DNA from: Asterochloris sp. CNOR1
Lineage: Eukaryota > Chlorophyta > Trebouxiophyceae > Trebouxiales > Trebouxiaceae
Length of the DNA: 64,000 nt
NCBI GenBank assembly: GCA_963969365.1
Contig: OZ017755.1
Span: 2,480,001-2,544,000, forward strand
Reading direction: 5' to 3'
Shown here: positions 5,743 through 49,756 of the stretch, piece by piece
Numbering within the stretch: position 1 is the first letter of the stretch
Layout: each line of letters begins with the position of its first letter
Translations under genes and position numbers: made by a program
Notes under the pieces: generated by a model
What the model saw: the letters and a program-made list of their open reading frames with translations, nothing else
Told to the model about the DNA's origin: nothing
Database searches by the model: none

Positions 5743-8700
5743 TCATGGCTGTTGTGCCAGAGGTGCTCTACCCCTGGCTGAGCGGGGACGTCTGATGGCG
5801 CTGGGGGGGCGCGCAGACCTGGACGGCTGCTGCGGCTGCATGGCCAGGCCATTCAGCACCTCTTCATCTGCCAGCATGATGTTCTGCTGCTTCCCCGGCT
5901 CCAGAAAAACAGTGACATGATTTTCAGACCCAAAGGCAGCATCCAGGGCAGCCTGCAGGGTACAGCTTTCGTCAGTGTGCCAAGTTTTTCCTGGAGGATA
6001 CAAGTCAGCAGTGGCTGTCACTGCTGGCAGTCATCAGTGGCTATCACACTGTGTAGCAGCGCATAGAGACAAGAACAGGCACCTGTGACTAGCAGGCTGT
6101 GAGGGCATGCAAGCAGGACGCCATGACCTTGCCAGCAGCAGATGGTCTTGAGGAATGGCCACAGGCAGGCGCACAACCAGCTCAGCCTTGCCTGCATGTG
6201 GTCTGAAGCGCCGCCAAAGTCGAAGGTGGTGCGCTCTGGCATGTCCAGCTCCATGTTCAGAATGTTTTCTGTCTTGTAGCGGGGGTTGTGGTCGCCTAGG
6301 GCTGCTGCCGCCTGCAGGCAAGGTCAGGATGTCCCCTTTCATGCAGTGGAGGTTGTGATGGCCAGGGCTGCTGCCGCCGCCAGTCAGCTGACACCATCAC
6401 ATGCAGGCCTCCTTCGTCAGCAGCATACACTGCTCCTGTTAGCACCGCCCTGCAGCTTGAAGGAACAGACCCATCCAGGTTGCTGCTCTGCACCTCACAT
6501 CATGCTTTGCTGTGGGCTGCAACGGCCTCTCCTGCCTAGCTACAGCTGAAGGGGTCACAGCCACATTCCTGCCTGCAAAGCTAGATGATTGCTTACGCTG
6601 CACAGTTCCACTCTTGCCATCCACGCTCACCAGGCAACCTGCCCCGACTGCAGCAGCTGCCTGGCTGTAGCTCTACAACTGGCAGGCTGCAAGTCCCACA
6701 CAGACACCTGGGCCCATGTGACCTTGGCACATGCACTTTCAGGCTGCACCTCTGCAAAGCAGATGAGGGACAACCCCGCACAGGGCACCTCGCATGCACA
6801 GTGTCTCACTTCCTTTGGCAGGGGTACTGACAGGAACGCAGCTCTGCAAGTCAGGTCCACCTCCTGCACAACCACCTGGGCTGCACAGCACACCCACCTT
6901 GGCATAGGCGCTGACAGGGCGGCGGGCGCCTGCTGCGCTCACAGGCCGCTTGGGTGCGCCCCCGCGCTGCTTGGCTACGTCACTCAGCCGCTGCAGCACC
7001 CATACTTCCTGCTCCTCGTCCCAGTGGGCTCGCTTCATCAGCTGCAGGGCAGAGACTGGCAGGATGCCTCTGCTGGCATGCCTTGCAGTGACAGCCTCTT
7101 CAAGCTGTGCAGGCACCGGCCTGATCTTAGTGGGCTCACTTTACAAGCTGCAGGGCAAAGGTTGGTAGCTGTCTCTATGGGCATGTCTTGCAGTGGCTGT
7201 GTGGACCCGTCTCTGGCCTCGTTGGGATGCAGGTACTGGCACCTGATCCCAGTGGGCCTCCTTAAGGAGCTACAGGGCACACAGGTTTACCCTTTGATGC
7301 CCGCAAGAGATGCAAGAGTTGACCTTCAGCAGGTGCAGGACACATGGTATTGCCCAGGCATGATGAGCCCTAGCCTCTCTAGGATACGATCACTGAGGTA
7401 TCCTGCCTCATGCCCACTTACATCAGCTGCACTTTGGGATGGTTGTCCATTTACAAACACAGGTCAAGGGGCGCGTCACCTAGCCAGGGCTGTGTTGCGC
7501 TTTTCAGACCAGCCTCAGGCCTCTGCATTGGCTGCAGGGCCTCAGGGATTGCAGCAACATCTTGAATGAGGGCTGTTGGGGCTGGGCTGCACCTGCTGGT
7601 CAATCGCTGCACCGGCCAGCCAGAGGAAAGCTGCGCTGCACAGCTGTGACAAGCCGTCAGTGCAACCTCAGCCGCAGCAGACCCCCTGCCATCAGATTAT
7701 TGGCCAGGCACCCACCTTCTGCACCTCAGGTGGCGGGATGAATGCCTGAATGACCAGGTCCTTGAGCGCCAGCTGCTGCTGTAGCATGCGAGCGCTATCC
7801 ATCATGACCTCTTTCTCTGCCTGCACATGGCAATGGTGCGTTCAGGCAAGTGTTTCATCGTTGTCTAGGGCGGACATGCTGCAGGGTGAAAGTCAAGGAC
7901 CCTTGATATCACTAAAAGCGCTGCTGAATTTCATGAAGCAGCACATTCAGCAGGCTGCATGTTTTATAAAAATTTCTCAGGCTGTGTGGCCCAGTGCAGT
8001 GTCATGTGATGGCCAAGCAGCCCCGCCTCTGCTTATTGCAAATGCCGCTCCATCCAGGCAGCTTCGCTTGCTTGGGTCAAGTATTGGCATGCACTCACCT
8101 GCCAGCCCCCCCGGTGGGCATCCACCTCTGACTTGACCTGGGTGTAGGCGCCCATCAGAGCCCGCAGCTGCTGAGTCAGCTGGGCCGCTTCATCCTGCAG
8201 GAGGATTCAATTTCAAGGTGGCAGGGGCCTGCAGCCCTGGGTCAAATGAGATGTCTTCTGCCAAGAGATGCCCTGCAGTCCGTGCAAGTGCAACGTGCCA
8301 TGCATTTGGTGCATCCACAACCGTCTCAGCATATCTGACAGTCACCGCTACGCCAGCCCACCTGCAGGGACGAGAACTTGCCCCGCGCAGCTGCCTTGGC
8401 CTGCTCCAGCTCTACGATGCGCTGCGCCTTGGCAGCCTCCTGCGAAATAGAGCACTGGAATTGATCAGGTGCGCCCTGGATGTGCCTCTGCAAGCTGAGT
8501 GGCAAAGTGGCGGTCATGGCAGCTCTCGCTTCTGGGCCCACAACGTCACAACCTGCAGACCTGTGTGCGAGGCAGTGCCAAGTGCTCAAAGCACAGCGCT
8601 GGAGACATGGTCCCTCTGACATGGAGGCCCTGGCAGATGGTGCAGGAGCAGTGCCTGCCTTATCCTTCTGCGCCTGCCACTCGCGCTGCCTGGCCGCCAG

Positions 8701-11700
8701 CAGCTGCTGCTTCTTCTCAGCAGCCGCAGCCAGGCCACCCATCTCCTCCCCGCGCAGCAGCTTGCTCTGCATGCGTGCCAGGCGGGCCTCTAGCTCCGCC
8801 CTGCAGCCAACGACTGATCCCTAAGCACTGCAGCTCTGTATCCTGGCAGTAATGAGGAAGGCAAGGCTGTTGCATGCCAGCAAGAGGGGCCTAGAGTTCA
8901 ACCCTGCAGCCAGGCCAGCAATTTGCACCTCGGGATTTGTACTCTGGCAGCCCTCCACAATGCAAGCCTTCTGCAGGCCAGCCAGGTGGGCCTCAAAGTC
9001 CGAACCCACAGCCAGGCCAACAGAGACCCTTGTTGCCAGACCCTACTTGCCACTAAGCGATGCAGCTCTTGGTCAGCACAATGTTCTGCGTAATCAGCCA
9101 GGCAAGCCTCAGCCCTGCAGGCAGGTTGACAGTTGAGACTGACACCCTGTGATTCATATCCTGGCAGCACCTCCTGGTCACTACAGCTCCTGCCGTGAAC
9201 AGGCATGGATTGATAATGACAATTACATGGTGGCCTCCATTCCAGCCTGCTTCAGCATTGGATCCGATGATGAGTGTGTGTGGCAGCCTGTCGTTTGGTG
9301 CACATGGCCTGCTTTGCAGGCAGCCGCAGCCGACCATGGAGCTCTAGCGACGGGTACCTTAGGGGGCCTCAAGGGTTACCACCATCCTGCCATATGCAGA
9401 AGGTAGTGTGATACCTGGCTTGCTGACCCAACCAGGCCTTTGCTGTGAACAGGGCCTCACTCGCAGTCAGCATCAGCTGCATCGACTCCAGAAGCTTCCA
9501 AATGGCAACATCACGTCAAGTCCTGTCAAGGTGTGTCTCGCACACGCTCAGCCCCTCAGTTGCATCCCCTCTCGGGTCTGCTGGCCCGTGCTGCATTTGA
9601 GCTCTCATCTACACCAGTTTTGTGACGCCGACTGCTCCTGAATCTGGTGGTCGAGACTTCCTGAGGCTGTCCTGCTTGCCTTGCAGCCAGCCCCAGGTAG
9701 CTGCCCTCCTCTGTGCTGTTGTGGTGTCTCGCACGCAGCCAGCCCTGCTGCACCCTCCCAAACTCACAATCAAGAGTCATGCAGGGCGTGCCTCACTTGC
9801 GCCGAGCTTCTGTTGCCCGCTGCTCGTGGATCTGGTGCAGTGAGGCTGCCTGCTGCTGCGCAGCTTCCTCCAGCTGAGCCGCCTCCTCCGTCGCCTTCCT
9901 GTGCTGCTCAGCCACAGCCGCAGCCTCCCTCTGTGCCTGCTGCTCAGCTTCCTCGTGGATCTGCAGCAACACAGCACCGCCTCAGCAGGCCATGCCAAGC
10001 GGCGCAAACACGTCACTTCACAGCAGCAGCCTGCCTTAGCACCTGCTGCTCAGCCTCTTCACAAATCTGCAGCACATAATTCCCAACAATCCTGCTGAAG
10101 CAGCACTGCCACAGGTGCTGCAGCACAGTTTCCCAGCCGCTGCCCATGCCTTCCTCTGCGCCTGGGCAGCAACTCTAGCATGGCGCTCTGCTGCTGTGCA
10201 GCATGACCCTGCCTCCTACAGAGCCCCAGCAGATAAGCAAGGCCCAGTGTCACGGCCTTTAAGGCGGTAGGGCCCTAACCCTGACCAGCAGTCTTTGGAT
10301 CTGGTTTTGCCCCTACTGCCCTGCTCATGCAGCATGCCCTCATGATAGGCTTGCCGGGACCTGCACTCAAGCCCCTTTCCCAAAAGGCTTCCCTACAGTA
10401 CTATTGTCGACGTTGTTATGGCTAACATCCTTGGAAGCAGCTCTGCCACGTGCTGCCCCTCTCAGCCTGTCAGCACAGGCCCATGTCGGCCCTCAGCATA
10501 CCCAGGGGAGAGATGAACACTCATTGTGGGCTTCTCAATTGACTCAAACATTCTGGCTGGCCCTTCGGCATGGACTGCGAGCAGGCAAAGCCAGCAGGCA
10601 TGGCGCCTCACTCAGTGTTTTGAGCATGCAATGGAGGAAGGCAGGCTCTCCACAGATAGACTTGGTTGTGTTGCCCCGCTGGGCAAGCCACAAAGTGGGC
10701 ACCTGCGCTGCCATGGCATAGCCCGACAGGCAGTTACACTTCCAAATGGCCACACGCGAGCCACCCTCATCTTGGCAAAGGTCCAGCTCGTCTCCCAGCG
10801 AGTTTGCCACGTCACTCAGTGCTGGCACGCAGCCCTCTCGGCAGGCCCGGCAGGGTTGTGCTGGCCAGTGTCTCCGTGACCAGCAGCAACCCTGCCTGCC
10901 ATGAGACCAGCGCTGGCATGCAAGCTATGTCTCGCGGCACAAGTTTCGGCTCGGTTCTCACTTTGGCCAGTGTCTCGGGGTCCAGCACGGCCCCCTGCTG
11001 CACCAGCTGCTCGCGCAGATCCCGCTCCATGTGGGCCCGCATCGCCTCAACCTCCTCCGCAGACAGCGGGCGCTCCACCCGCCTCTGCAGGCAGACCCCA
11101 CAACACGTGAAGTGCTTCAGGCGCCGTATCCTTAAACCTGTCTTCATGTCAAGAAAGTGGGGTCTCCACAGAGCAGCTGTGCAATCTGCTCAAGCACATG
11201 TTTGACAGCCCTCGGTGCAATCACCCCCAAGCAGTCGGCCCCAAGCACATGCTGCCGGACTCAGCATGAAACAGCGTGCCAAGATGCTGGCGCAACTTTC
11301 CTCAGCAGGTGGGGGGGCGCTACACCAACCTCTGCAGGTCAGGCACAGGTTGCAGTGCTGAGCAACGAGCTTTCTGTCAAGCTGCCGGCAAGCTCTGCAA
11401 TCCCGTGCAAGCCGGGGGCACTCCATTAATCTTTACAGGGAAGGCATGCAACGTCCCCATCTGCACTGTTGTCTGGCTGGCAAGGGTACACCTCCGTCCA
11501 GGTGCAGGGCCACTGGTTGGCACATGTTGCCTATGGCACGCATTGCTTTGCACACGTAGCAACAGGTATTCTGCACACATGGTTGCGTATACCAGCAAGT
11601 CAGGGGCCTCCCCCTAGCTGCTGCAGGCAACACTGTCTGGAGCAGACACCTCATGCTCACAAACTGCTCGAAAGGAGTCCCCTGCCACCGCCCCCTCCAG

Positions 11701-27318: not shown

Positions 27319-30300
27319 CTATTGTTGCATCTGAAAAGGGTGTGCTCTGACTGAACCCCCCAAGCTGCAGGAGAGGAGGCCATCTGCTGTCACAGTTATG
27401 TCTGTGACTACGTCAGGGATCTGGGATGGCCGAGCAGTCTTGAACGCGTTACTGAAGAAGTTGCGTCCTGCAGCATGGAAGTGTCCTTTTACTTTGGACA
27501 TGCATTGTGCTGGTGCAGCGTGCATGCATGCATCATCATCACCAGCTGAGCAGGTTCCCCACCTTTGGAAGTGAGAGTCTGCTGCTGGCTGGAGGGCATT
27601 ACATGGGCACCCTCAATGGCTTGCAGGTGGCGGCCCCTGCCGGCAGACCAGACGTGGATGGTACCATCATGGTGCCCTGTCACCAGCATGGTGCCACCTG
27701 CATGCATGGTTGCAGCAGGAGAATGAATGTGATGAGCAGTCCTGATTTGGGCGTGCAGGAGGCTGACCGCTTGAGACCAAATGAGTGGTTGAGAAAGCAC
27801 TTTTTGAAACGATTGGAGGCATCAACCTACTGATGCATAGCAGCTCAGCAGTGTAGAGCACTGTAGGAGATCAGAAGCGGATGCTCAAGTCTGGCATGTC
27901 CAACATTGTTGCTCCCTATCAAGGAGGCGGAGCATGCCGCAAGGGAAAGCACCCCGTCACAAGGCTTTGCAGCCATGTGCCTCACGGTGTGCAGCCCCAA
28001 AAATCAGCCACAGCATAGCAGTCATACAGCTCTGCTTACTGCCCTCACATCCAGTCATGCACCTGTCACCGGAAGCAGCACCCCACACAGCTCTTGCTGA
28101 CTCCCCACCTGCAGACCTGTCCAGCACCGCCAGTGCACAGCCCACTGCCGCTCAGGTCAGGCAAGTGCACTTGCAACCAGGTGTCTGCCTCTGTGCTGAG
28201 CACCTTCGCTGAGAAACAGCAGCCAAGCTCCGCGGCAGACCCTTGTGGTGCTGGCGACAGCCTGGCCGCTGTGCAGCTAATGCCTTGAACCTTGAGCCTG
28301 AGTGTGTTGCCTTGGTGAGCCCCAATTCAAGACTTATTCCTACCTGCACATCTTCCTGGTGCTGGCTCCAGCCCAGATGTTCTGCGTCTTAGCCCAAGTG
28401 CCCAACGAGGGTACATCAGGGGATCTGCCTCCCAGGGGCTGAGCACTCCGCTCAGAGCCCACAGGCAGGCTCCTACATGCATGCCCAATTCCTCTCCTAT
28501 GAGTGGCTGCCCCAGCTGTCGAGGAGACCACGCCTGCGCATTCCCCAACAGCTGAGGGCCAAGGAGGGGAACCCTCACAGCCAATATCATCCCCACGACA
28601 TCCAGAGTGCTGTTCACCCGAGGACTTGTCTGTAGCCCAGCTGCCGTACAGCTGATGCTCGTACATGAGGCCTGAGGCTGAACTCTCAGTGGCGGCCGCA
28701 CAGCAAGATCTCACCTGCAGAACCATCTGGAGCTGGCCACAGGCCGGCCGTCATGCAGACCACACCCGCGCTCTCACTCGGGGGCCTGACCAACCACAAG
28801 AGGCCCCGTGCAGCTGCGTCGGCGGCCGCGCTGCTGGCGCTGCCATCCACACTGAGCCGTTTGCGTGGGGAGCCAGCCATCAGGTGCCCGCTGGACCTGC
28901 AGACAGCAACACAGGGATTCAGCGTTTGAAACACAAGGGTGTGGGGTGTGGCTGGAGGCAGCTCATGTCGCCATCAACTGCTGCCGTTGTGGACTTTGCC
29001 GTGCAGCTTGCCATCAGGCGCCTACGGGATCTGCATGGAGGTCGATGTCAAGCTATTACAGGTGAGCTGCCCTGTGCAGTGCGGCAGCGCAAGCTATCAG
29101 ATCGCTGCTCGAGCTAGACGGTAACAGAACATGGGGACTGGCTGTCTCTGCCAAATACTGGATTTTTGACACAGCAAAGCACAAGATGAAGTGAATGTTC
29201 CTTGGGAAAGCCATAGTCCCTGTGCTGCCACCAGCACTGCACAAAGACAGGCCAGGTGTGCCAATGATGCACCAAACACAGACTTCCGCAACAGCCCCAG
29301 ATGAGCATCGACGGTTGAGCTGCCTGAGCAAGCCAGCTGCCCATGTGGTGCTGCCAGCCCAGATGAGAAACAAGGGCACAGCCTCATGGCAGAAACAAGC
29401 TCGATCTGGTGCTGCAGCCCCAGCACTGACAGTGATCATGACCCAACCCAAAACACCAAGTCAAGACCTGCCGCCTGAAGACGCCGGCTGCCCACCTGGC
29501 ACTGCTACCCCGCGGACTGGCGCTATTGGCCAGCGACCCCCCCAGCATGCGCAGGTCCTTGACTGCAATGGTGCCGCTGGCATCTGCGCTGGCCAGGTGG
29601 TACCCTCCAGGCAGCACCTGCAAGGGACCAGCGCATCTGTGAAGAGTCTGCTTGCCAGGTGGCATGGTTGATGGCTTGTCGCTCTCAGTTTGGAGGGCTT
29701 GACAGAGCTCTAATGAGTGGGACGGTGTGCTCCCTAAACGCATAGCACCTGCAATGGCTTGCGTAATGGTGGTTCATGTGTCGTGCAGAGGCCATCACAC
29801 TGTCATTCAGCACTTTCGGTGGACATCAACCCAGGAAGCTGGGTTAGCTCGCGCCAGAACTGCCATGCTGAGGAATGTGCAGGAAGCAGTGGACATCAAA
29901 TCTGATGCTGGCAGCCTGTCATCAGGCATCACAAGCACTGCAGAGCATGCACAAAGTGCTCCTGTAATTGCCAGCCAACCCCCTGGATTGAGCATTGCTG
30001 GCATGACAGGGCCTGTCCAGCCAAAGCCATGACCTTGCTGGCACCTCTCACCCCTTCCCTGGCATCGGAGGAAGTCGGGCAGCCACGCTCTCACCTGTAA
30101 GGAGGTGACAGCTGCTGAATGGTGATTCAGTCGAGCTACAGGGCGGTGGTAGGAGGGCGCCTGAGTGTCCCAGATTGCAATGTTGGCTCCAGAGGCGTCC
30201 AGACCACCGACAGCCAGCACACTGCTGCCCGTCCCCAGGAATGCCACGTCCATGCCCCGCTTGCTGAGGCCCTGCAGGCACCAATGGTGGGTGAGAGGCT

Positions 30301-33300
30301 GCAAAGCATATGATGGCTTGCGGGGAACCTGCAGCAACAGATGGAGGTAGACTGGCTGTTCGGGATGATATCATCTGTGTTGTGCATTTGTTCAAGCCAC
30401 AGTACTTAGGCGCTGCAGGGTTTGAGTGGGTGTTGGCTGGCTGCTGGGACTCATGTGAAGATGGACTGCAGTTGTGACCTTCCATGTGATACATGTTTAT
30501 CACCCAGCCTGCATCAGGCGGTTGTGACGACCACAGCATGCACGCTGAAGCGCGGTCCTTGGTTTGCCACACCCTTCCCCTGCTTGCTCAGGCCCTGCAG
30601 GCGCACATGGTGCCAAAAGGGCTGCAAACAAGCTGATGGCGTTCGTCTGCAGATCTGCAAACCTGCCTGCCTACTGCAAATGGTGCTCACCACCCTTGCT
30701 GAGCAGCCAACTTGCTGCCCCGGCAGCAGCTGGGTGCTAGCCTGCCCAACCTGCTTCGACAAGCAGCTGACAGCAGGTGAGGTGTGCTGTGGCGCCCTGC
30801 AAACCTACTGGTGGACGCATTCTTGTTGCCAGGCAACATCAGGGGGACTGCAGGTGCAGCGAATTTGCCTGATGGCACCAGTCAGAGCGTCCCAGGTAGC
30901 CGGTATCAGAGGACACCAGGCGGGGGGCATCGATGCGCCACGTGGCCACCACTCCACCATCCCCAATGCCTGCGAAGCGGTCCCCGCAGTCGCTCCACAC
31001 CACCTGCAGCATGTTCTTTTGTTTTACTCTCTTGGGGTGTGCTGCACAGACCTGTCCAACTCAATGTGCCCTCTGCAGCTGCCGGCCGCAACCACATGCA
31101 GCACATGAACTGTCTGTCTGGCTCTTCATCTGTGCATGTGAATCTCAGTCCAAGATATTGTAGCCAAATGCAATTCCCAGCAGTCGGTCATGACCACCAA
31201 CGAGCGCCCAGGCCTCAGAGCAGTTGTCACACTTTTGCTGGGCATGCGACACCATCTCGCGTTGCCCTTGCCAACCAGAAGCCGTCACACGTACGCTCTG
31301 CAAGCCACACTGGCTGCAGGCACCCAGCTGCACGCAAGGCGTCAGCCCAGGGCTCTTTACAGGACATTGCTAGTGATGGTGCCTACTTGAGAGCCTCCAT
31401 GAAAGCCCAGCAGCTGCTCACCACCTGTGGCGGGCCGCTGTGGTGAAGCCGATGCAAGGTGCAGTTTTCCAAGACCTCAGAGGGGAGTTGAGCATTTGAG
31501 TGCACAGGCTGGATGTCAGTTGGCACAGATATCCAGCAGACGCCTTTCAACTGGGATTGGCTCCAGTAGCTGAAGCTGGTGCCAGGCCAAGCTGTGGACC
31601 ACGACAAGTTCCAGGCGGAGCAGCTGCTCACCGACTGTGGCTGGCCCCAGTGGGTGAAGCTGGTGCCTGGTGCAGGGTTCCAGGACCTCGGTGGGGCACT
31701 GAACATGGACTGGGCAGAGCTGGGGGCTATGGTCACGGCGGCAGGCATTGGAGTGTAGCCCGCTGTCGCAAAGCGGTCGCCAAACTTGCACAGGAAGACC
31801 TCGCCTGAGCTGCTGCCTGCAGAGGCAAGGAATGCAAATGTCGGTATGATGGTTTGGCTTGAGTGCTTGCCCTGCCTGCGTCGACTGATGCCATGGACGA
31901 TGCGCAGCTCATTGCAGCGGTGATGGCCAGGAGGCAAGCACGGCGTGCCTGCAGGAACGTCAGGCAGGCAGATCTCGAGCAATGAGCAGAGCGGGCACAC
32001 ATGGCAACAAATCGTCATACTTGCAAAGGCAAACTTTGCCAAAGCTGCTGCCTGCACAGCCAGGCAGGGGCAGCAGTGGCATGGCTGCCAATCGTCAGCT
32101 CAGATGCAGGGCACAACAGAGCTATCAGCACCTCACCTGACATCAGAGCTGCAGGGCACAGCAGAGTGATCAGCAAACAGCTCAGCAGTCATGAGCTGGC
32201 CCCGTGCCAGCCCATTGGTCACAGCCGGCCTTGACTTGATGAAGTCCCCACTTGCCACTGCAGTTTGCCAGTCTGATTGCTTATGACACCACCTCACAAG
32301 CCTAGCATGGCGGTGCAGCTGAAGTGCCGCACCTGACAGGTAGAGCTGGCGCGTGGGGTGGGCACACAGCGTGGATGTCAGGATCTGGCCCAGGGGCGCC
32401 CGCACGCGCGCTGCGCTCGGGGACTCTGGCTTCGGAGCCGTGGCTGCGCGAGTGTGGGGCCCCCCAGCGAGGACGCCGCCCCCCATGTGGGGTGTGGCCA
32501 TGTTGGTCCAGGGATCCCCCGGCCACCGAACTGCCTCCAGCATGTCGCCCAGCAGGGCTGAGAAGGCTGAGCCCTGCAGACGGCAGCCAGTGTACCTTTG
32601 CCAGCTGTCACAAATGCCGGTAACAACTGCATATCATGCTTTTTGTGTACCTGGCAGTTGCAGATTCAAAACCAAGGACATGCAAAGGTCAGGTTCAACT
32701 GACCCCCCAAGGCCCAAATCCCTGGCAGTCCCACACTTTGCAGAGGCATGCACATCACAGTGCAACAGCAGGATGGGCCCCTTCTGCTGATCTGTACATC
32801 AGCCTCACGACCAGCCCTCCAACACTGATATCAGCACGTCGCTGAATGAAGCCCACCTTGCGCTGATCCTCAAGGCCCTCCTCCCGATCAGCCCCCACGC
32901 TGTAGTGCTCATCCAGCAGCAGCACCTCCCCCTGAATGAGGCCGTGGTGCCCCGAGGCTGCCACGAAGGGACGCCCCTCTCCACCTGCATACCCATACAT
33001 GCCTGCACGACGCGGCAGGGCACGCCTCATCTGCTTATGTGTTGGACTGCACATAGCAGCACATCTTGGCCAGGTGAAAAGGCGCAGCAGCCAAGCGCCT
33101 ACAATGCGCATAAAGGCAGCTGTCATCACTGGCTGAGGTCATCAATCTGTGCAGCACAAGGTGCTGCAGAGGAGCTCCCATTACGCCAGCACGCCTACAC
33201 CTGCCTGTTCCTTCATACTTCTGGGTGTGGATATGAAGCAGAGGTCAGCTGCAAACCTAGTGCAGGTGTCCTGGCCGGCGCATGCAGCTCAAAGGCTTTT

Positions 33301-39300: not shown

Positions 39301-42300
39301 ATCATCTGCAGAGCATGAAGGAGGATTTGCCAAGCCTCTTCACCCTGATTGTCAGGTAGGCACAGAACACAGCTCGCCCTTGGGCCAGTAATCCTGGCAG
39401 AGTACGAGCTGACTTGTGCTAGGGCCTTGATTGAGAGCAGGTGCACAAATGCAACTAGGCACGGCCGCATGCAGTCGTACATATAAATCAACCTCCCCTC
39501 ACTGCTGTGGCTCATTTGCAGCTGCCACACAGCCGTTTTGTGCAAGGTCAGCTCACCCTCATCATCGCTTGGGTCCACTTGCGGCAACAACAAGCGCTCA
39601 AGCGCCTCCAGCTCTTCTAGACTCAGAGCATCTGCTGGCTTCGAGCCCGGACGCCGAGGCTGAAAGACTGCAGCGGCTTGCTGCCTCCTCTGAGACCTAT
39701 CCCTGGCAGGGCTCTGGGCAGCACCAGGCAGGCTAGTGCCCGTTGTGCGGCTGCCGGGCACGGAGGCTGCCCCCTGCCGCTGGTGCCCTTTGACAGAGAT
39801 ATCTTCATTGGAGGCAGCGGAGTCCCTGCCGTGGCCAGCTTGTGCACTGCCCGGCGGCTGCTGCAGAGGCTGACCCAGCTGGTCCATGCCAAATGCCTCT
39901 GGGTCAAAGGCAAAATGGTCAGCAGCTGCTCCAGGCGCCGGCGCAGCCTGTGCACTGCCCGGCACCTGTTGCGGCGGCTGCCCCATGCCAAACGCTTCAG
40001 GGTTGAAGGCAAAGGGGTCGGCGGCAGCAGCAGGTACGGGGGCAGCGCTGTCAGGCTGCTCTGCATGGCCGCTTCCGGCAGCGTCCCCCATGCCAAAGGC
40101 ATCAGGGTTGAAGGCAAAGGGGTCCCCAGACGAGGCAGGCGGCGGCCCAGGCTGGCTCTTAGTCTGGTGCCCTGCTTCCTGCTGGCTGTCAGTGCCCATC
40201 CCAAAGGCGCCCATGTCAAAGGCGAAAGGGTCAGCAGCGGTGGGCGCCTGCTGCGGTGGCGGGGCTGCTGCAGGGGCAGGGTCCCCGCCAAAGCTGCCCA
40301 TGTCAAACGCATATGGGTCTGCGCTGGCTGGCTGCTGGTCGGCACGAGTCTCTGTAGCAGGAGCGCTGCTGCTCCCCATGTCAAAAGCACCCATGTTGAA
40401 AGCGAAGGGGTCCACTGGCAGGGCTGAGGCTGCCCTGGATCCAGTGCTGCCTGCAGCACACCAACCGAAGCTACTGATGTAAAGCCATGAAACCTGGATT
40501 TGGGGGCGTGGCTGGATCAGACCACCAGTGACAAACGCAGCAGCCCATTACTTAGAGGCACAGGCTCCAAGGGAGCTGAAGATGGCAATAAGGCTGCCAC
40601 CCGAAGCCCCTTTGCGCAGTGTGTCAGGCTCATGGGGGCTTGCCACGGCGACAGAGGTGCAGCAGCCTGAAGGCCCGACTGGCCAAGGCCAGTGAAGTAA
40701 CGATGTCTTGCAGTAGCTGCAGCGTGTTCGCTGCCACAGTGGCTGCAACAGAAGGCTGTATGGAGCTACATGGAGGTTTACAGCAGCAGCAGACAGAATG
40801 ACCTGCATTCTGCCTCTCAGGCAGCCTGGCACTCCTCAGCCATGCTGTCAGACAGGCATTGACATGGAGCCCTGATAACCTGCATCCCCCTTCAGCCATG
40901 CTGCCAGACAGGCATATTTGTGTACAGCCTAAATTACCTGCATTCCCCTGAGGCTGAACACTGACTCCTGCACCCTTCAGGAGTGTGAAGCTGACGCAAC
41001 TTGTCTGAAGCGCGGGAACCCTACCTGCAGTCCCCTTGAGCTCGCCATTGGGCGCTGTGCCCTTGGAGGTGTGCAGGGGCTTCATGGGGCCATCGTCATC
41101 ATCTGTCTGCGCTGAGCCTGATCCAGCCCGAGCAGCTGCAGCAGGTGCCGCAGGCGCAGCCTTTGCTGCCTGGGCAGCTGCAGCCTTCGCAGACTCTGGC
41201 AGCCGAGCGCTGAGGCGGGTGAACGCCTTCAGGAAGTTGGCGTCCAGGATGGCATCCACCATTGGCGGTGGCAGCTTCTGGTCTGCGCCTGCAGAGACGT
41301 CGGGTCGTGCCATCACACAGGGGCTCTGGGGTCGGATGTGGCGGCCGCTGATGCAAGGACAAGCGGTCTTGCTACACAACGCCGCAAGGTATAATTTGTG
41401 TCACCGCTATACAAAACCGCCTACATCTGCAGCCTGTTGCCAGGATGCTGGTGACCAGTCTGAAGTCAGCCACTTTTTGCTCACCAAGGCTGCAGCTTCA
41501 TGTTCATGCCAATGTGCAAAAGCGGAGTCAGAACAGAAGTGCTCTCACACCAATGTATCCAAGAACCACCTTTGTGCCCCGCCAGGGCCTCTCAGTTCTC
41601 AACTGCTGTATATGACTTACTTCCTGAAGAACCTTGTACCAATGCAAGAGGCATGTGGCACATACCTGGCACCTCATCTGGCTTGCCTGTCGCGCTGCGC
41701 CCCTGCAGCCGCTGCAGCATGACCCTGATTGCGGCGCTGGCCGCCTGCATGCGCCCCCGCTCAATCAGCATGCGCAGCCTGCGCGGGTCAAACTGGGGCA
41801 GCGGGCCTCCAGCCTCCGCAGCCACTGCTGCCAGAGCAACGGGGCTGCCACCACTGACCTCCTGACCCACCAGAGCCAGCACCCTCCCATGCCCATCAGG
41901 CTGCTCTGTGGCCCGTGCCACAGGACTGAGGCAGGCCAGCAAGGACCCTGCGCCCAGCAGCACCTGCTGGCACAGTGCCTGGGGTGCAGACCCGGGCGGG
42001 GCTGACGACCCAGGAGTTGCCGGAGCTTTTGGCTTTGTGCCCGCGGCAGCCAGGGCAGGGGTCCCAAGCCCTGCATCTTCCCCTGCACTGGCGCCTGCCA
42101 GCGGCTGCTGGCCCGGCAACCTGCCGGTGTTGGCCCCGCAGAGCTGCCGGACAGAGTCTGGCAGGCTGGGCAGCTTGGCAATGGGGGCGAAGCCGCCATC
42201 CTTGCCACGCACGAAGACTCTGAACTCCGGCCAGGAGTCTGCGACAGCCAGCGCCACACCGGGCAAGCACCCTTCTAGCCAAACCACCGCTGTGGGCGCC

Positions 42301-45300: not shown

Positions 45301-48300
45301 CTCTGTGCTGCCTTCAAGCGCTGCATTGGGCAGCATCAAGCACCTTGACGAGCATTGCACCAGTGGAACTCTGCCCCTGGTAAACAACCGTCTTTTTCTA
45401 GCAACACCGCACCACAAGCCTGCGCAAGCTGGAGGATGCCAAACTGGCTTTGTATTCCACCCCCCCTCCCCTTTCCCGTGATGCACAGATACAGATATAA
45501 AATGGCAGAGCCCTCTGCGTCAGCCCTGGTACAGAGAAGTCGGCTCAATCCTGCCACAGTGCTGGCGTGTCCACACAAAGTCAAAGCAGTGTGCACCAGG
45601 GCCCTGCAAGGTGCCTGCATCGTCTGGCACGCACCAGACGACGGGAGCTGAGATGCAGCTGAAGGTGAGCAGCACATCAGAGCACAGACAAGGCGTGCAC
45701 CTCCTGTGCTGCGCATGTGCCGCAGCACCCAAGTGGTCCAGCCGTCCTGTAGGCAGTGTTTGGCCCCTTCGACACACAATGCAGTCGCCTCATGATGCAC
45801 GCAATGATCGACTGGTTGACTCCTTCAATCCATGTTGCAGTCCCCTCAGAGTGGCTATAACTTCGCTAATGTGCCGCTCACTGCCAGGACCTACATGATT
45901 TGGCTGCTTTGCAGGCAGTAAGTCACCCCTTTTGCCCACACAGCAGCCCCCTCACAGCGGCCTGTCACCTCTCTGCTGCGCCACCGCCAAGACCCACATG
46001 ATCTGGCTGCTCTGCAGGCAGTGAGTCACCCCTTCAACCCACTTCAACCCACACAGCAGTCCCCTCACAGCGGCCTGTCACCTCTCTGCTGCGCCACCGC
46101 CAGGACCCACATGATCTGGCTGCTCTGCAGACGGTGGTTCACCCCTGCGAGCCCCGCGTCGGGCTGGCCCCAGCAGGCGCGCAGGGTGCCGGGTGCCAGC
46201 TGGGCCTGCACCCCCTCAGGAGGCTGGATGACCAAGCTCACACAAAAGTGCGAGCTGCCGAAGTGGGGGTGGGGGCGCGTCAGTCCTGCAGGCACCGAAA
46301 CGGAAGCCTTTTTTGTACAGGCTGGTCTGTTGCAGCAATCTGCATGCACTGCTGGAGGCCGGTGTGACAGCTGGGACCTGCAGGCACATGCAGCTGCTTT
46401 GGGCATGGAGGCATGAACTTCATTAGGTGCAAGCTGGCACCCTCACAGGTCTAAGTGACTTATGCAGATGGAGACTGAAAGAGTGGATTCTGCTGTGGTG
46501 CACCACACAGAGTGTCAATAAACACAAACATATGTACATGTTTTGTGTAATTTTGCTTTGCCTTCCCGTATTATGTTGTTGGGGGTTGCCTGCCAGGTGT
46601 CCTCGGCACTCATAGATGCCGCAACAGGGCAAGCACCACCTTGGCAAGACAGTGGTATGTATGCTTATATGACTTGCCTTTGACAGGAGAGCCGGCGGGT
46701 GCAGGAGGTTGCGGCGCAGGCGGCTGCTGCTGCACATTGCCTTGCTGCTGCTGGCTCAGCTGCAGCGCGTGCTGCACATGGGCATAGCCTTGGCCCCTGC
46801 AGAACACAGCAGTGCTTGTGTCTGCTGTGCATAGTCTGCTCAGCGTGGTTGTGTGCAAGCTCAGCTGTGTACATATTGTGCACAACACTGCATCCAGGAG
46901 ACCTGTGGCGAGAGTTGCATGCCTTGCTGCTCCTGTGTGGGGCATTGCATTGCAACACATGTCCCTACGAGAATGGCCTTGTCTAATGCAATCACCATAC
47001 AAAGGGAGCTTGACCAAATGCTGATGACTCACCGCGTCAAGCTGCAAGGCAAATGCCGGCGCTTGAGGCATACCATAGCGAGTGCGCCACCACGTCAGGG
47101 CCAGCTGCATCTAGCTGTGGGGCAAGTGGCTGCCCTTCAAGCAGTTGCACAGCAGCTACGCCCACACGGACCCCCTTGGCAGGCCACACCTGCAGCTTAA
47201 ACCCTCTTGCCCCACTGCCAGATGTGTACAAGGTGGTGCACAGCGCCTGTGCCCACCTGGGCTCCTCTTTGCTCCACTGCTGGATGCCTCCAAGGAAGTG
47301 CACAGCGTCTCTACTCACCTGGGCTCCCTTTGCCCGGCAGCGCCTGCAGCTGGGTGACGTTGCCCCACTACCAGATGGATGCAAGGAAGTGTAGAGAACC
47401 TCGGCCCACCTGGGCTCCCCTTTGCCAGGCGGCGCCTGCAGCCTGGCACCACCACTGCCACCGCCAGGTGCAGCGGGGCCAGCTGGCTGCTGGGGCAGGG
47501 CAGGTCTGCCCAGGCTGGAGCCCTGTGCGGGGCCCAGCATGGGGCCCACAGTGACCTCCACCCAGATGCGTATGACGCTGTCCTCCCCCACAGTCATCAG
47601 GGCTGGCTGGGAGGTGGCTGCAGCCACAGGCGAGCCCGCCTCATCCCCATTCTCCTCTTCTAGGTCGGGACTCACACCTGCAGTTGCACTCAGAGTTCTG
47701 TCGTCAGGCGGGGCTCAGGTTGCTCCAATGGTGCAGAGCTCCAAGCAGCCAGCAAGACCGCCGTCTGAGGCTGCTCTGACAGCAACCTGCAGGGCAGGTT
47801 GAACCTGGACGGGCATTCAGTATCTGGGGGCCAATCCACTCCAGCATAGATTGAGCTTGATCCAGTGCGGACACTGCTGTCGCGCCAGTCCTGAGAAGTT
47901 GCCCTTGCAGGCAGGCTGAAGCCAATCGCCATGACAGCAGCACACTGCTCAGTGAGCACCGTCAGAGGCCGCCTGCCACATTGATGTGTGCCCCTGCCAT
48001 GGCAAGCAGCCTGCACCTGCAGATGCAACCCAGCAGACTGGTGGCAGTCCTCGGGGAAGCTTCCCTGCAGGTACCCTGCCACTCGGTAGCGCCACAGGAT
48101 TCAGTTCAGGTCAACATAGCCATCAGGCTGGCACTGCTTGGGGAGACCCAAGCGCAGGCAGCGCGCTCAGCTGGGCTTCAGGTCAACAGAGTCAGCAGCA
48201 GGGTAGACACCAGCCATGCAGCGACACTCTCCATTGGGTCCCATTGCAGGCCGCTCACTGCTGCTGGAGCGAAGCTTGCAGTTCAGCAGCAAAGTATGTG

Positions 48301-49756
48301 TGCTGGAGCGCCCCTGGATCCCAACAGTGTCAGCAGGGGGCAAGTGCTGCAGGAGAACCAGCCAGCAGGCAGCTCACTAGGCTGCGGTGCCGCAGGCAAT
48401 CCACGCCAGGCCACCAGCTCAAACTGAAGCCCAGCGTGCAGGCAAACATTTTCTCTTCCAGAGAAGCAATACAAAGGCAGGTCACCATGCTGCAGTGCCC
48501 CTGGGCTCCACTCCAGGCCGACAACGCCAGCAGGGTGGCGCAGCTGCTCAGCCAGCACCGCAACCTGCTCTGGGGAGGGCCTGTGGTGTGCCTGCCGCTG
48601 ATGCGCTGCGTCCTGGACGTCTGGGAGGTGCTCTGGCCACCAGATCGTCACCTGCACATCAACGAGATGCCAACATCTGAGGCAGGACGTGGCTGCTGAG
48701 CTCAAATGGGAGATGTTGGTTGACAAGCTTGATGAAACTCGGCATGCCCTCCTCGCAGTGATCAAAGAACAGGTCTCGATCATTTGCACCCCTGTCCGTT
48801 CCCATGCGCCACACAATTCCTGTTGAACCTGCAGGCTTTGCCCACCTGTCTGCTGCCTGGCGAGGCAGAGGCTGCCGGGGACATCACGTTGGTGCCCGCC
48901 GCCAGCAGGGTCTGGGACTGCACCAGCATGGAGGAGCTCCCCGTCCACACATGCACCAGCCTGCTGCCCCTGCCGCTCAAGTCGCCGGGCTCCGGGACGC
49001 GGTACATGACTACGCAGCCTTGGGTGTCGGCTGCCAGCAGGCCATCTCCTGCTTGGGTCCAGGACAGCGCAGCAATGTCTGCGGAGTGCTGCACCGCGCA
49101 CAGCATCTGGCTGTCCCCCTGTGGCGGCCCTGCAGCATTTGCTGCCAGCTCTGGAAGCTGCGGTGGACTTGAGAGAGACATAGCAGATCATGTGGCGGGG
49201 AACTGCAGCATGCAGGCTGCATGGAGTAGACAAAGCAGCCACCACAGCAGAACTGCAGGTGGTGCCTGCTGACCTTCGTGGGGTGCTATGCGGCCTTGGA
49301 GAGCCAGCATGCTCGCTGTGAGCGAGAAGAGGTGGATGTGATTGCCGGCAGCGGCAGCAAGTAAATTCTCTGCAGACTTGCTGCTGAATACCACGCTGAT
49401 GATGTCCCTGCCAGCATTGCGGGCCGCGGGGACAGCCAAAACTATGTCCGGCTGTCGTGCAAAAGGGACACCAGGCTGAGATGGGCTGTCTGATGATGCC
49501 TGCACCAAAAGACACTAAGTGCAAAGCTGACACCCAAGCATCCCTACCTTCTCCGCACTTAGCCACCCAGCACAAGCTCATGATGCAAAACAGATGCTTC
49601 CATGGCACTGACCTGACATGTTGCTATGCCAACCAGGCCTGCCCCTGCACCATAAGCGAGGAAATGCTGATCCGGGAGGTCGACAGATTTACAAAACTCG
49701 ATGGGTGAAGTGGGGGAGCCCAGTGCTTGGGCATCAAGCTGAAGTTGGGCCAGCAT
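27319..49756 (-). CDS. RAV1: Rav1/DmX-like (rabconnectin-3 alpha) V-ATPase assembly factor, about 2,640 aa, 32 exons
   Basis: RAVE-type regulator that reassembles V-ATPase V1 and V0 on acidic organelles. Exons: 49756-49613, ~49475/49451-49266, 49157-48846, 48651-48486, 47677-47410, 46796-46678, 46285-46082, 45320-45141, 44878-44714, 43994-43658, 43294-42834, 42457-41666, 41288-41025, 40450-39557, 39305-39110, 38620-38409, 37757-37636, 36847-36701, 36237-36127, 35941-35791, 35280-35143, 34983-34167, 33576-33476, 32984-32857, 32573-32333, 31816-31632, 31003-30869, 30271-30095, 29617-29496, 28896-28715, 27697-27611, 27467-27319. N-terminal WD-like repeats (LMTVGEDSVIRIW, LAASLDANGLVLLWSV) lead to the Rav1p_C region: GVLSESQEALL, MRQAGAGFWLTD, KDPHSCALMYTALQRKALL, VADFLGRDFSDVKNRT, KNAFVLLGKHRHELAAAFF, DPQLALFLARLL. 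A C-terminal WD fold follows (SSSGEVFLCKFGDRFATAGY, GLDASGANIAIWDT, ASADASGTIAVKDLRM). Exon 2 borders are unresolved and the start of exon 23 is chosen by frame. Several GC donors. Exon 14 encodes DPF-rich repeats. Confidence 0.92.
30255..30620 (-). repeat. Echo of Rav1/DmX exon 28 start
   Basis: The exon 28 border (CCTGCAG then GLSK, plus strand 30257-30278) recurs at about 30579-30606 with the same TTGCTNAGGCCCTGCAGG core. Following sequence also matches (ATGGTG, then GGCTGCAAA, then GATGGC). Offset about 329 bp. Confidence 0.65.
31405..31700 (-). repeat. Echoes of Rav1/DmX exon 26 donor end
   Basis: The exon 26 end (plus CAGCTGCTCACCGACTGTGG at 31621-31640, with flanking TTCCAGGACCTCGGTGG) is echoed at 31411-31480 (CAGCTGCTCACCACCTGTGG, TTCCAAGACCTCAGAGG). 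The offset of ~210 bp equals two ~105-bp units. A GAAGCTGGTGCC block repeats at about 31570 and 31656. Confidence 0.65.
34020..34230 (-). repeat. Echo of Rav1/DmX exon 22 end
   Basis: The end of exon 22 reads EGDRLSRSHSAFSGKSLI. About 130 bp downstream in the intron (34041-34095) a copy reads RGDRLSRRASASSSRPL in the same orientation, clearly paralogous but outside the gene model. Confidence 0.8.
38586..38950 (-). repeat. Four-copy echo array at Rav1/DmX exon 16 acceptor
   Basis: The real exon 16 start reads ALPSADWAALDAAGQQ (acceptor 38621-38622). An echo near 38791-38834 reads LRPAEWAALNAAGSKK after its own acceptor-like CAG. Further partial copies near 38701 and 38909 share the ACAGGTCTCC and CACACACAGGCTCCT blocks. 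Spacing is about 90-118 bp. Confidence 0.8.
39557..40450 (-). repeat. DPF-rich protein repeats in Rav1/DmX exon 14
   Basis: One long exon codes for six imperfect copies of a motif like DPFAFNMGAFGMG (variants DPYAFDMGSFGGD, DPFAFNPDAFGMG, DPFAFNPEAFGMG, DHFAFDPEAFGMD), spaced by Ala/Pro/Gln-rich linkers of ~15-25 residues. It ends in an acidic helix (SLEELEALERLLLPQ). The frame is open for 298 codons and in phase with both neighbours, so the repeats are translated. It lies in the low-conservation middle of the Rav1/DmX protein. Confidence 0.9.
43979..44275 (-). repeat. Echoes of Rav1/DmX exon 10 start
   Basis: The real border reads GISAGNQPLAMVHE (acceptor 43995-43996). Upstream intron copies at 44100-44120 (reading DVSAGSMPLATTHH) and 44248-44270 keep GCCAGCTGAGA and an acceptor-like CAG or TAAAG. 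Offsets are 121 and 148 bp. Confidence 0.8.
44891..44912. repeat. Telomere-like TTTAGGG run at a splice acceptor
   Basis: Two adjacent units of the plant/green-algal telomere heptamer (TTAGGGTTTAGGG plus a degenerate third) lie in a Rav1/DmX intron, 12-34 nt upstream of the exon 9 acceptor. On the coding strand this is a CCCTAAACCCTAA tract that could serve as branch site. Confidence 0.8.
45840..46140 (-). repeat. Near-identical 106/113-bp tandem copies of Rav1/DmX exon 7 end
   Basis: The exon 7 end (reading SSQIMWVLAVAQQRG, donor at 46081) lies in a ~75-nt block from 46056 to 46130. The block is repeated at about 45944-46017 with only about two mismatches, and again, more diverged, at about 45841-45915. 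CTCACAGCGG starts at 46064 and 45951, and its variant at 45845. Each copy carries the donor site. The youngest pair looks recent. Confidence 0.85.
47160..47450 (-). repeat. Echo array of Rav1/DmX exon 5 donor
   Basis: The real exon 5 end (GKGEPR then GTGGGC donor, plus CACCTGGGCTCC at 47407) is echoed at about 47317 and 47254, with a degenerate copy near 47170. Copies keep the donor and the following VLYTSLHPSGSG-like or LCTTLYTSGSG-like frame. Spacings are 90 and 63 bp. Confidence 0.75.

What the first reader, a model, noticed from the sequence alone, without database searches (positions are those of the whole stretch)
8790..9310. Introns made of exon-edge echoes: a ~105-bp tandem array built from the kinesin exon 12 border
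At least three upstream copies of the acceptor plus exon start follow one another at 103, 102 and 109 bp, together with a shared intronic block at the same period. The intron appears to have grown by tandem duplication of a unit spanning the splice junction, with the copies then decaying. The same pattern recurs in at least four genes here, on both strands, at acceptors and donors. I know of no described process that gives exon-border arrays this consistently; a lineage-wide intron-expansion mechanism is an inference.
Basis: partly seen in the sequence, partly recalled or inferred. Interest (0 to 1): 0.85.

Follow-up and report, generated by a model that had tools for sequence, protein, structure and literature searches.

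The report
Decayed tandem duplications across splice junctions
A green-alga-like gene has an intron lengthened by old, decayed tandem copies of a stretch that covers the end of the intron and the start of the next exon; the same kind of copy occurs in roughly one in fourteen introns examined, and ordinary short DNA duplications, kept recognisable because exons change slowly, explain it best.

Summary
Intron 8801-9796 (minus strand, kinesin-2-like gene) holds three upstream copies of its own acceptor plus exon start, spaced 103, 102 and 109 bp; 0 of 1000 dinucleotide shuffles and 0 of 478 other window stretches reach the summed score. With a self-trained gene finder on 264 kb, 33 of 462 testable introns match their own exon edge better than 200 foreign edges; the reverse-complement control gives 4. 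A 40-kb replicate, model untouched, gives 6 of 57 against 0. So the pattern is genome-wide but marks about 7% of introns; recognisable repeats cover 5.0% of intron and 4.9% of exon bases. "Introns made of exon-edge echoes" is too strong. Best explanation: short tandem duplications arise throughout the genome; those crossing a splice junction are tolerated because splicing keeps one copy, and the exonic half stays recognisable because the working copy is constrained. Simulations reproduce most features, though no single setting fits all. No dispersed family was found, and the signature of intron creation by duplication is absent (0 of 454). Border-crossing tandem duplication is already described: a new example of a known kind.

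The parts
8659..8800 (-). exon of the kinesin-2-like gene whose start is echoed ([20 protein letters not shown]...)
   Evidence: gene finder; the protein matches KIF3A in the PDB, E 1.5e-05, from query residue 37 on, which fixes the frame of this exon but does not cover the junction itself; the motor start of the gene matches Pfam Kinesin, E 6.2e-19
8801..9796 (-). intron of 996 bp that carries the array; working acceptor TTGGCTGCAG|GGCGGAG, score 8.0
8871..8912 (-). echo 1 of acceptor plus exon start, 103 bp upstream, 76% identical over 42 nt; keeps a full acceptor-like site (first base 8903, score 8.2)
8970..9014 (-). echo 2, a further 102 bp upstream; the acceptor AG is lost (CTGTGG)
9108..9123 (-). 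echo 3, a further 109 bp upstream; acceptor-like site intact (first base 9114, score 8.4); gapped similarity runs to 9167
8801..8865 (-). intronic half of the unit, similar in gapped alignment to about 8904-8950, 9006-9106 and 9115-9167
   Evidence: gapped alignments with lenient scoring, no significance test
9283..9403 (-). possible fifth, strongly decayed unit (gapped score 32; not tested for significance)

Best explanation
The array is the decayed remains of successive short tandem duplications, each of a roughly 100-bp unit that ran from inside the intron across the 3' splice site into the exon. After such a duplication, splicing to the copy nearest the exon body still gives the correct mRNA, so the upstream copies become intron and drift freely. 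The working exonic copy is held by selection, so exon-echo pairs diverge at roughly half the rate of intron-intron pairs, and the similarity that survives looks like an 'exon edge'. The same process, at donors and acceptors and also inside exons, introns and intergenic DNA, leaves about one recognisable repeat cluster per 1.7-3.2 kb in the three stretches examined. SHOWN here: same-strand, short-range repeats far above background; own-edge specificity with several controls and a replicate; unit-wide gapped similarity at the target; no dispersed family found; no signature of intron creation. INFERRED: neutrality of the echoes, the order of events, and the molecular cause. The most likely cause is fill-in and end joining at staggered breaks or paired nicks, reported to give tandem duplications in plants and animals.
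For: Direct repeats exceed inverted ones at lags 60-500 bp (117 against 10 at score >=28). 175 ungapped hits at lag 20-500 with score >=18 form 100 clusters in 264 kb; 7 such hits lie at lags 1300-2500. Own edge best of 201 in 33 of 462 introns, RC control 4; replicate 6 of 57, RC 0. Own edge scores >=30 in 24 of 738 edges (only introns with at least 3 other tested introns in the gene), against 0.58% for neighbouring introns (n=1200), 0.04% for other introns of the gene and 0.06% for other genes. Exon-exon repeats have lags that are multiples of 3 in 10 of 13 cases, as expected if mainly in-frame duplications survive in exons. Where a copy crosses a junction, the intronic half of the unit is also similar in 14 of 54 testable cases at p<=0.05, donors 11 of 28 (39%), acceptors 3 of 26; the neutral simulation, made for donors only, gives 41% and 30% for d 0.2-0.4 and 13% for d 0.25-0.5. 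Simulated reach of similarity into the intron (10-90 percentiles -2, 4, 9, 20, 36) against observed (-1, 5, 10, 22, 35) for one of six tested settings. Echoes keep GT/GC in 21 of 29 and AG in 21 of 30, against about 0.6 expected from the exon-part identity.
Against: No single simulated setting fits everything: the intron reach fits d 0.2-0.4, which predicts a border share of 0.81-0.92, while the observed 47 of 72 (0.65; clusters whose copies both cross a border, or exon against border, left out because the simulation leaves them out) fits d 0.1-0.4 (0.58-0.60). Settings with duplications of all ages predict a lower border share (0.50-0.53, p 0.007-0.027; about 0.40-0.51 in the four settings) and more similarity in the intronic half (78% against 26% overall or 39% for donors). 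Acceptor cases keep the intronic half in only 3 of 26, unexplained. Some high-identity echoes (e.g. C1 donor at 95907, 94% over 33 nt) show no similarity in the intronic half. The similar stretch is about as long as the lag (>=0.8) in only 20 of 100 clusters.
Confidence: 0.85

Rival explanations
1. A border-directed process: duplications are triggered at splice junctions (for example by nicks or R-loops where introns meet exons), so that exon borders really are hotspots.
For: Copies that cross a junction exceed random placement in the first gene model: I/mixEI 30 against 15.7, mixEI/mixEI 12 against 3.7. The border share of 0.65 exceeds the settings with duplications of all ages (p 0.007-0.027; 0.40-0.51).
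Against: Slower change of the exonic copy gives a similar bias for d 0.1-0.4 (p 0.13 and 0.23) and a larger one for d 0.2-0.4. Recognisable repeats cover 4.9% of exon and 5.0% of intron bases; exon-exon repeats are about as frequent as random placement predicts (11 against 13.2).
Confidence: 0.08
2. The echoes are kept because they work: duplicated splice sites act as decoys or alternative sites that tune splicing of the gene.
For: Two of the three echo acceptors score 8.2 and 8.4, the real one 8.0; 17 of 30 acceptor echoes and 7 of 29 donor echoes still score >=5.
Against: Retention of GT/GC (21 of 29) and AG (21 of 30) is near the neutral expectation of about 0.6. At the target every echo acceptor gives a frameshift (103, 205, 314 nt) and a stop codon. 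Echo 2 has lost its AG. Another acceptor-like site inside the array (8970, score 8.4) is not at an echo junction.
Confidence: 0.05
3. Tandem duplication created these introns (Rogers model: duplication of an AGGT-bearing exon stretch makes a new intron of unit length).
For: Donor consensus CAG|GTGAG and acceptor CTGCAG|G share CAG|G, so such gains are possible in principle.
Against: Similarity at lag = intron length beyond the consensus: 0 of 454 introns at threshold 12, expected 0.0 and 0.2 for the two ends.
Confidence: 0.02
4. Chance similarity caused by the shared splice consensus and biased composition, or an assembly error.
For: The acceptor motif CTGCAG is very strong, and the target array has two weak matches elsewhere in the 264 kb (31 and 38 nt, 87%, E 9e-05).
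Against: Splice signals were left out of the intron core in the rank tests; reverse-complement, foreign-edge and far-lag controls are near or below expectation. The target copies differ from the exon edge at 24-38% of sites, which assembly duplication would not give.
Confidence: 0.01

Closest known systems
Potato RdRp intron gain by tandem duplication across an intron-exon boundary (PMC4974935; abstract and passages seen)
   Same: A tandem duplication covers the end of an intron and the start of the next exon, carrying acceptor and exon start into the copy.
   Different: There one recent event made a new intron; here many older events in one genome appear to have lengthened introns, and no intron-creation signature of the unit-length kind is seen.
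Small tandem duplications from break repair (PMC8355091, passages seen; Messer and Arndt 2007, Vaughn and Bennetzen 2014, Schiml et al. 2016 seen only as entries of its reference list)
   Same: Short head-to-tail direct duplications.
   Different: The molecular cause was not tested here; the copies here are mostly old and decayed, and many lags exceed the <100 bp class named in that paper.
Tandem genomic duplication model of intron gain (review PMC3443670, passages seen)
   Same: Duplication of sequence carrying splice signals inside genes.
   Different: That model predicts intron length = unit length with AGGT at both ends; tested and not found (0 of 454).
Direct repeats at splice sites of novel Drosophila introns (PMC2809761, passages seen)
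   Same: Direct repeats overlapping splice sites, attributed there to break repair.
   Different: Those mark newly gained introns and can be as short as 8 bp; here the repeats lie inside introns of unknown age and are longer.
Introner elements (recalled, no call on the literature)
   Same: Repeated sequence in introns.
   Different: Introners are dispersed through many genes; the units searched here were found only at their own place, apart from weak short matches.

Membership tests
Short tandem duplication (mutational class) | head-to-tail, same-strand copies at short distance | tested here: met
   117 direct against 10 inverted at lags 60-500, score >=28; lag spectrum
Short tandem duplication (mutational class) | copies abut, so the similar stretch is about as long as the lag | tested here: inconclusive
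   length/lag >=0.8 in 20 of 100 clusters, 8 of 28 with identity >=0.85; at the target a lenient gapped alignment covers whole units
Short tandem duplication (mutational class) | made by break repair | not testable with these tools
   needs recent events in related strains or an assay
Border-crossing tandem duplication (potato RdRp type) | duplicated unit crosses the intron-exon boundary | tested here: met
   target array; 59 border cases (29 donor, 30 acceptor; one cluster can count at both ends) from 100 clusters in 264 kb
Border-crossing tandem duplication (potato RdRp type) | a new intron results | not tested
   no relatives available; the number of introns before and after is unknown
Intron gain by AGGT tandem duplication (Rogers model) | exon end resembles intron end, and intron start resembles exon start, at lag = intron length | tested here: not met
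   0 of 454 introns (60-600 bp, flanking exons >=45 nt, of 582) at threshold 12; 1 and 1 of 454 at threshold 10 against 1.4 and 3.0 expected
Introner element or transposon | same unit at many unlinked places | tested here: not met
   three arrays searched in the whole 56.4 Mb genome match only themselves, by a search that skips very common words; 3 of 100 clusters, the target among them, have a short non-local match at E<1e-4 in 264 kb
Minisatellite | array of similar units that a tandem-repeat finder detects | tested here: not met
   TRF at minimum score 40 finds no ~103-bp array at 8790-9310; about four decayed units

The most novel reading that the evidence does not exclude
In this algal lineage exon borders are hotspots where splicing- or transcription-linked nicking triggers tandem duplication, so that introns grow outward from their own splice sites and gather a trail of ready-made spare splice sites.
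Probability: 0.07. Interest if true: 0.75.

Novelty: new member of a known kind. Interest (0 to 1): 0.35.

Why it matters
It shows, within one genome and with controls, a concrete route by which introns can lengthen without transposons: short tandem duplications that splicing tolerates at exon borders. It also offers a reason why surviving traces look like exon edges, a bias that could mislead others into proposing a border-specific mechanism. Echo splice sites as strong as the real one are a natural source of cryptic splicing that RNA data could test.

Tried and rejected
Tried and rejected: transposon or introner origin; intron creation by duplication; known RNA family in the window (Rfam gathering thresholds, 0 matches); special 105-bp period; chance or composition; assembly error (divergence of copies). 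The first gene model had exons of 3-10 nt, some of which may come from echoed splice sites luring the gene finder, so it was retrained with a minimum internal exon of 24 nt; the earlier echo test (own edge best of 151 in 8 of 347 acceptors and 18 of 347 donors, RC control 3 and 3) points the same way. BLAST self-comparison gave no hits at lags under 60, taken as a BLAST artefact because the direct lag scan finds them. Nine paper searches bearing on the pattern (listings capped at 10-20 rows, one search found no paper) showed no description of exon-edge echoes in algal introns; passages of the Coccomyxa genome paper PMC3446292 do not mention it either. The library lacks most subscription journals.

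Full report
SETTING. The window is C10:2480001-2544000 of a genome of 56,383,464 bases in 21 contigs. That the species is Asterochloris-like is inference, not a test.

OBSERVATION. The gene runs on the minus strand. Its protein begins with a kinesin motor (Pfam Kinesin, E 6.2e-19 for the first 110 residues) and its tail matches KIF3A (E 1.5e-05), so it is kinesin-2-like. That match starts 23 residues inside the target exon: it supports the exon's frame, not the exact junction. The exon is 8659-8800, after the acceptor TTGGCTGCAG; the intron is 8801-9796. Copies of acceptor plus exon start have junctions at 8903, 9005 and 9114 (spacings 103, 102, 109). Their summed score is 90 against 48.6 +/- 4.3 in 1000 dinucleotide shuffles (none reach it) and none of 478 other window stretches. 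A lenient gapped alignment extends them over full units with a shared intronic block, and gives two weaker candidates (no significance test).

ARE THE ECHO SITES USABLE? The real acceptor scores 8.0 in the trained matrix, echo sites at 8903 and 9114 score 8.2 and 8.4, and the middle echo has lost its AG; a further site at 8970, inside the array but not at an echo junction, also scores 8.4. Using any of the three echo junctions shifts the frame (103, 205, 314 nt) and meets a stop codon. No RNA data were available.

GENOME-WIDE SCAN WITHOUT GENE MODELS. In 264 kb (window plus 200 kb of C1), direct repeats exceed inverted ones at lags of 60-500 bp by 117 to 10 (score >=28). An ungapped lag scan gave 175 hits at lags 20-500 with score >=18, grouped into 100 clusters, against 7 hits at lags 1300-2500. 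Best lags per cluster: 42 in 20-100, 17 in 100-120, 14 in 120-160, 27 above 160. The window is denser (38 clusters, 0.59 per kb) than C1 (62, 0.31 per kb; p 0.002). A further 40 kb of C4 gave 21 clusters and 0 hits at lags 1300-1780.

GENE MODELS. I trained a hidden Markov gene finder on the sequence itself, then again with a minimum internal exon of 24 nt. There is no RNA support, so single junctions may be wrong; conclusions rest on totals.

For each intron of 80-1500 bp with flanking exons of at least 40 nt, the 40-nt exon edges were aligned to the intron core with splice signals removed, and compared with 200 edges from other introns. Testable: 462 of 582. Own edge strictly best: 15 acceptors and 19 donors, 33 introns in all; reverse-complement control 4 introns; expectation about 2.3 per side. 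By length quartile, shortest first: 3, 4, 10 and 16 of about 116 each. Introns with echo have median length 312 bp, others 227 (p 0.0002); longer introns also offer more room, so this is consistent with growth but does not prove it. Score >=30, for introns with at least three other tested introns in the gene: own 24 of 738 edges (3.25%), neighbouring introns of the gene 0.58% (n=1200), other introns of the gene 0.04%, other genes 0.06%. Replicate on C4 with the model left untouched: 6 of 57 introns, control 0 (57 of 81 introns were testable). In the 264 kb, echoes occur in 18 of 64 genes. So the pattern is real, local and found on all three contigs sampled, but it concerns about one intron in fourteen, and recognisable repeats cover 5.0% of intron bases, 4.9% of exon bases and 2.2% of intergenic bases.

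WHY DO THEY LOOK LIKE EXON EDGES? In 59 border cases (29 donor, 30 acceptor) the ungapped similarity reaches a median of 40 nt into the exon but only 10 nt into the intron. This first suggested copying of exon edges alone. But if a tandem unit crosses the junction, the exonic half compares a drifting copy with a constrained one, while the intronic half compares two drifting copies. Simulating this gave intron reaches of -2, 4, 9, 20, 36 (10-90 percentiles) against observed -1, 5, 10, 22, 35, and matching exon reaches and identities, for one of six settings tried (divergence 0.2-0.4 per copy, exon rate 0.2, indel 0.1). With real sequences, for donors, 41%, 30% and 13% of simulated cases keep detectable similarity in the intronic half in three settings of old duplications and 78% with all ages; observed 11 of 28 donors (39%), 3 of 26 acceptors, 14 of 54 together. 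The share of border cases among border plus intron-intron pairs, 47 of 72, lies inside the simulated range of 0.50-0.92 over ten runs, and above the roughly 0.40-0.51 of the four settings. Frame effects agree with selection on ordinary duplications: exon-exon lags are multiples of 3 in 10 of 13, border-crossing lags in 6 of 41 (one cluster of mixed kind left out), the latter perhaps because in-frame ones are kept or called as exon.

WHAT DOES NOT FIT. No one setting fits all measures: the reach into the intron wants d 0.2-0.4, the border share d 0.1-0.4. Young duplications seem fewer than a steady rate would give. Acceptor cases keep the intronic half less often than donor cases. A few high-identity echoes lack any similarity beyond the splice signal. 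These leave room for a modest border effect, loss of young copies by recombination, or retention of some echoes.

WHAT IT IS NOT. Three arrays searched in the whole genome match only themselves (that search skips very common words), and 3 of 100 clusters have short non-local matches in 264 kb, the target with two of them; so nothing points to an introner or transposon. The signature of intron creation by duplication is absent: 0 of 454 introns. No Rfam family reaches its threshold in the window.

KNOWN RELATIVES. A tandem duplication crossing an intron-exon boundary is described in a potato gene, where it made a new intron (PMC4974935, abstract and passages). Tandem genomic duplication is an accepted route of intron gain (PMC3443670, passages), and direct repeats at splice sites of novel introns are reported in Drosophila (PMC2809761, passages). 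[quoted passage not shown] My searches (capped listings) showed no report of this pattern surveyed in algal introns, but the library is partial.

VERDICT. A real, well-supported trace of ordinary short tandem duplication at exon borders, made conspicuous by the slow change of exons. Useful as a quantified case of intron lengthening; not a new mechanism on present evidence.

Noticed in passing
45926-46153 (minus-strand gene end): A 113-bp unit tandemly duplicated at 89% identity, the highest-scoring direct repeat in the 264-kb scan; it crosses a predicted exon/intron border near the end of the predicted gene at 45965-49756.
   Followed up: partly
window as a whole against C1:1000001-1200000: Repeat clusters are about twice as dense in the window (0.59 per kb) as in the C1 stretch (0.31 per kb), p 0.002; the C4 stretch has 21 in 40 kb.
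   Followed up: partly
all predicted introns: Very strong acceptor consensus CTGCAG|G (T 90% at -5, G 92% at -4) and about 6% GC donors; from a self-trained model without RNA support.
   Followed up: no
39836-40424 (predicted exon, minus strand): Repeats with best lag 105 bp, and lags 87, 99, 108, 180, 204, 213 and others, inside a long exon of the large predicted gene 23179-45336; no Pfam match for that frame.
   Followed up: no
30210-30645 and 31777-32062 (minus strand): Repeats in which both copies cross a predicted acceptor (lags 323 and 235): either tandemly duplicated exons or small false exons called on echoes.
   Followed up: no
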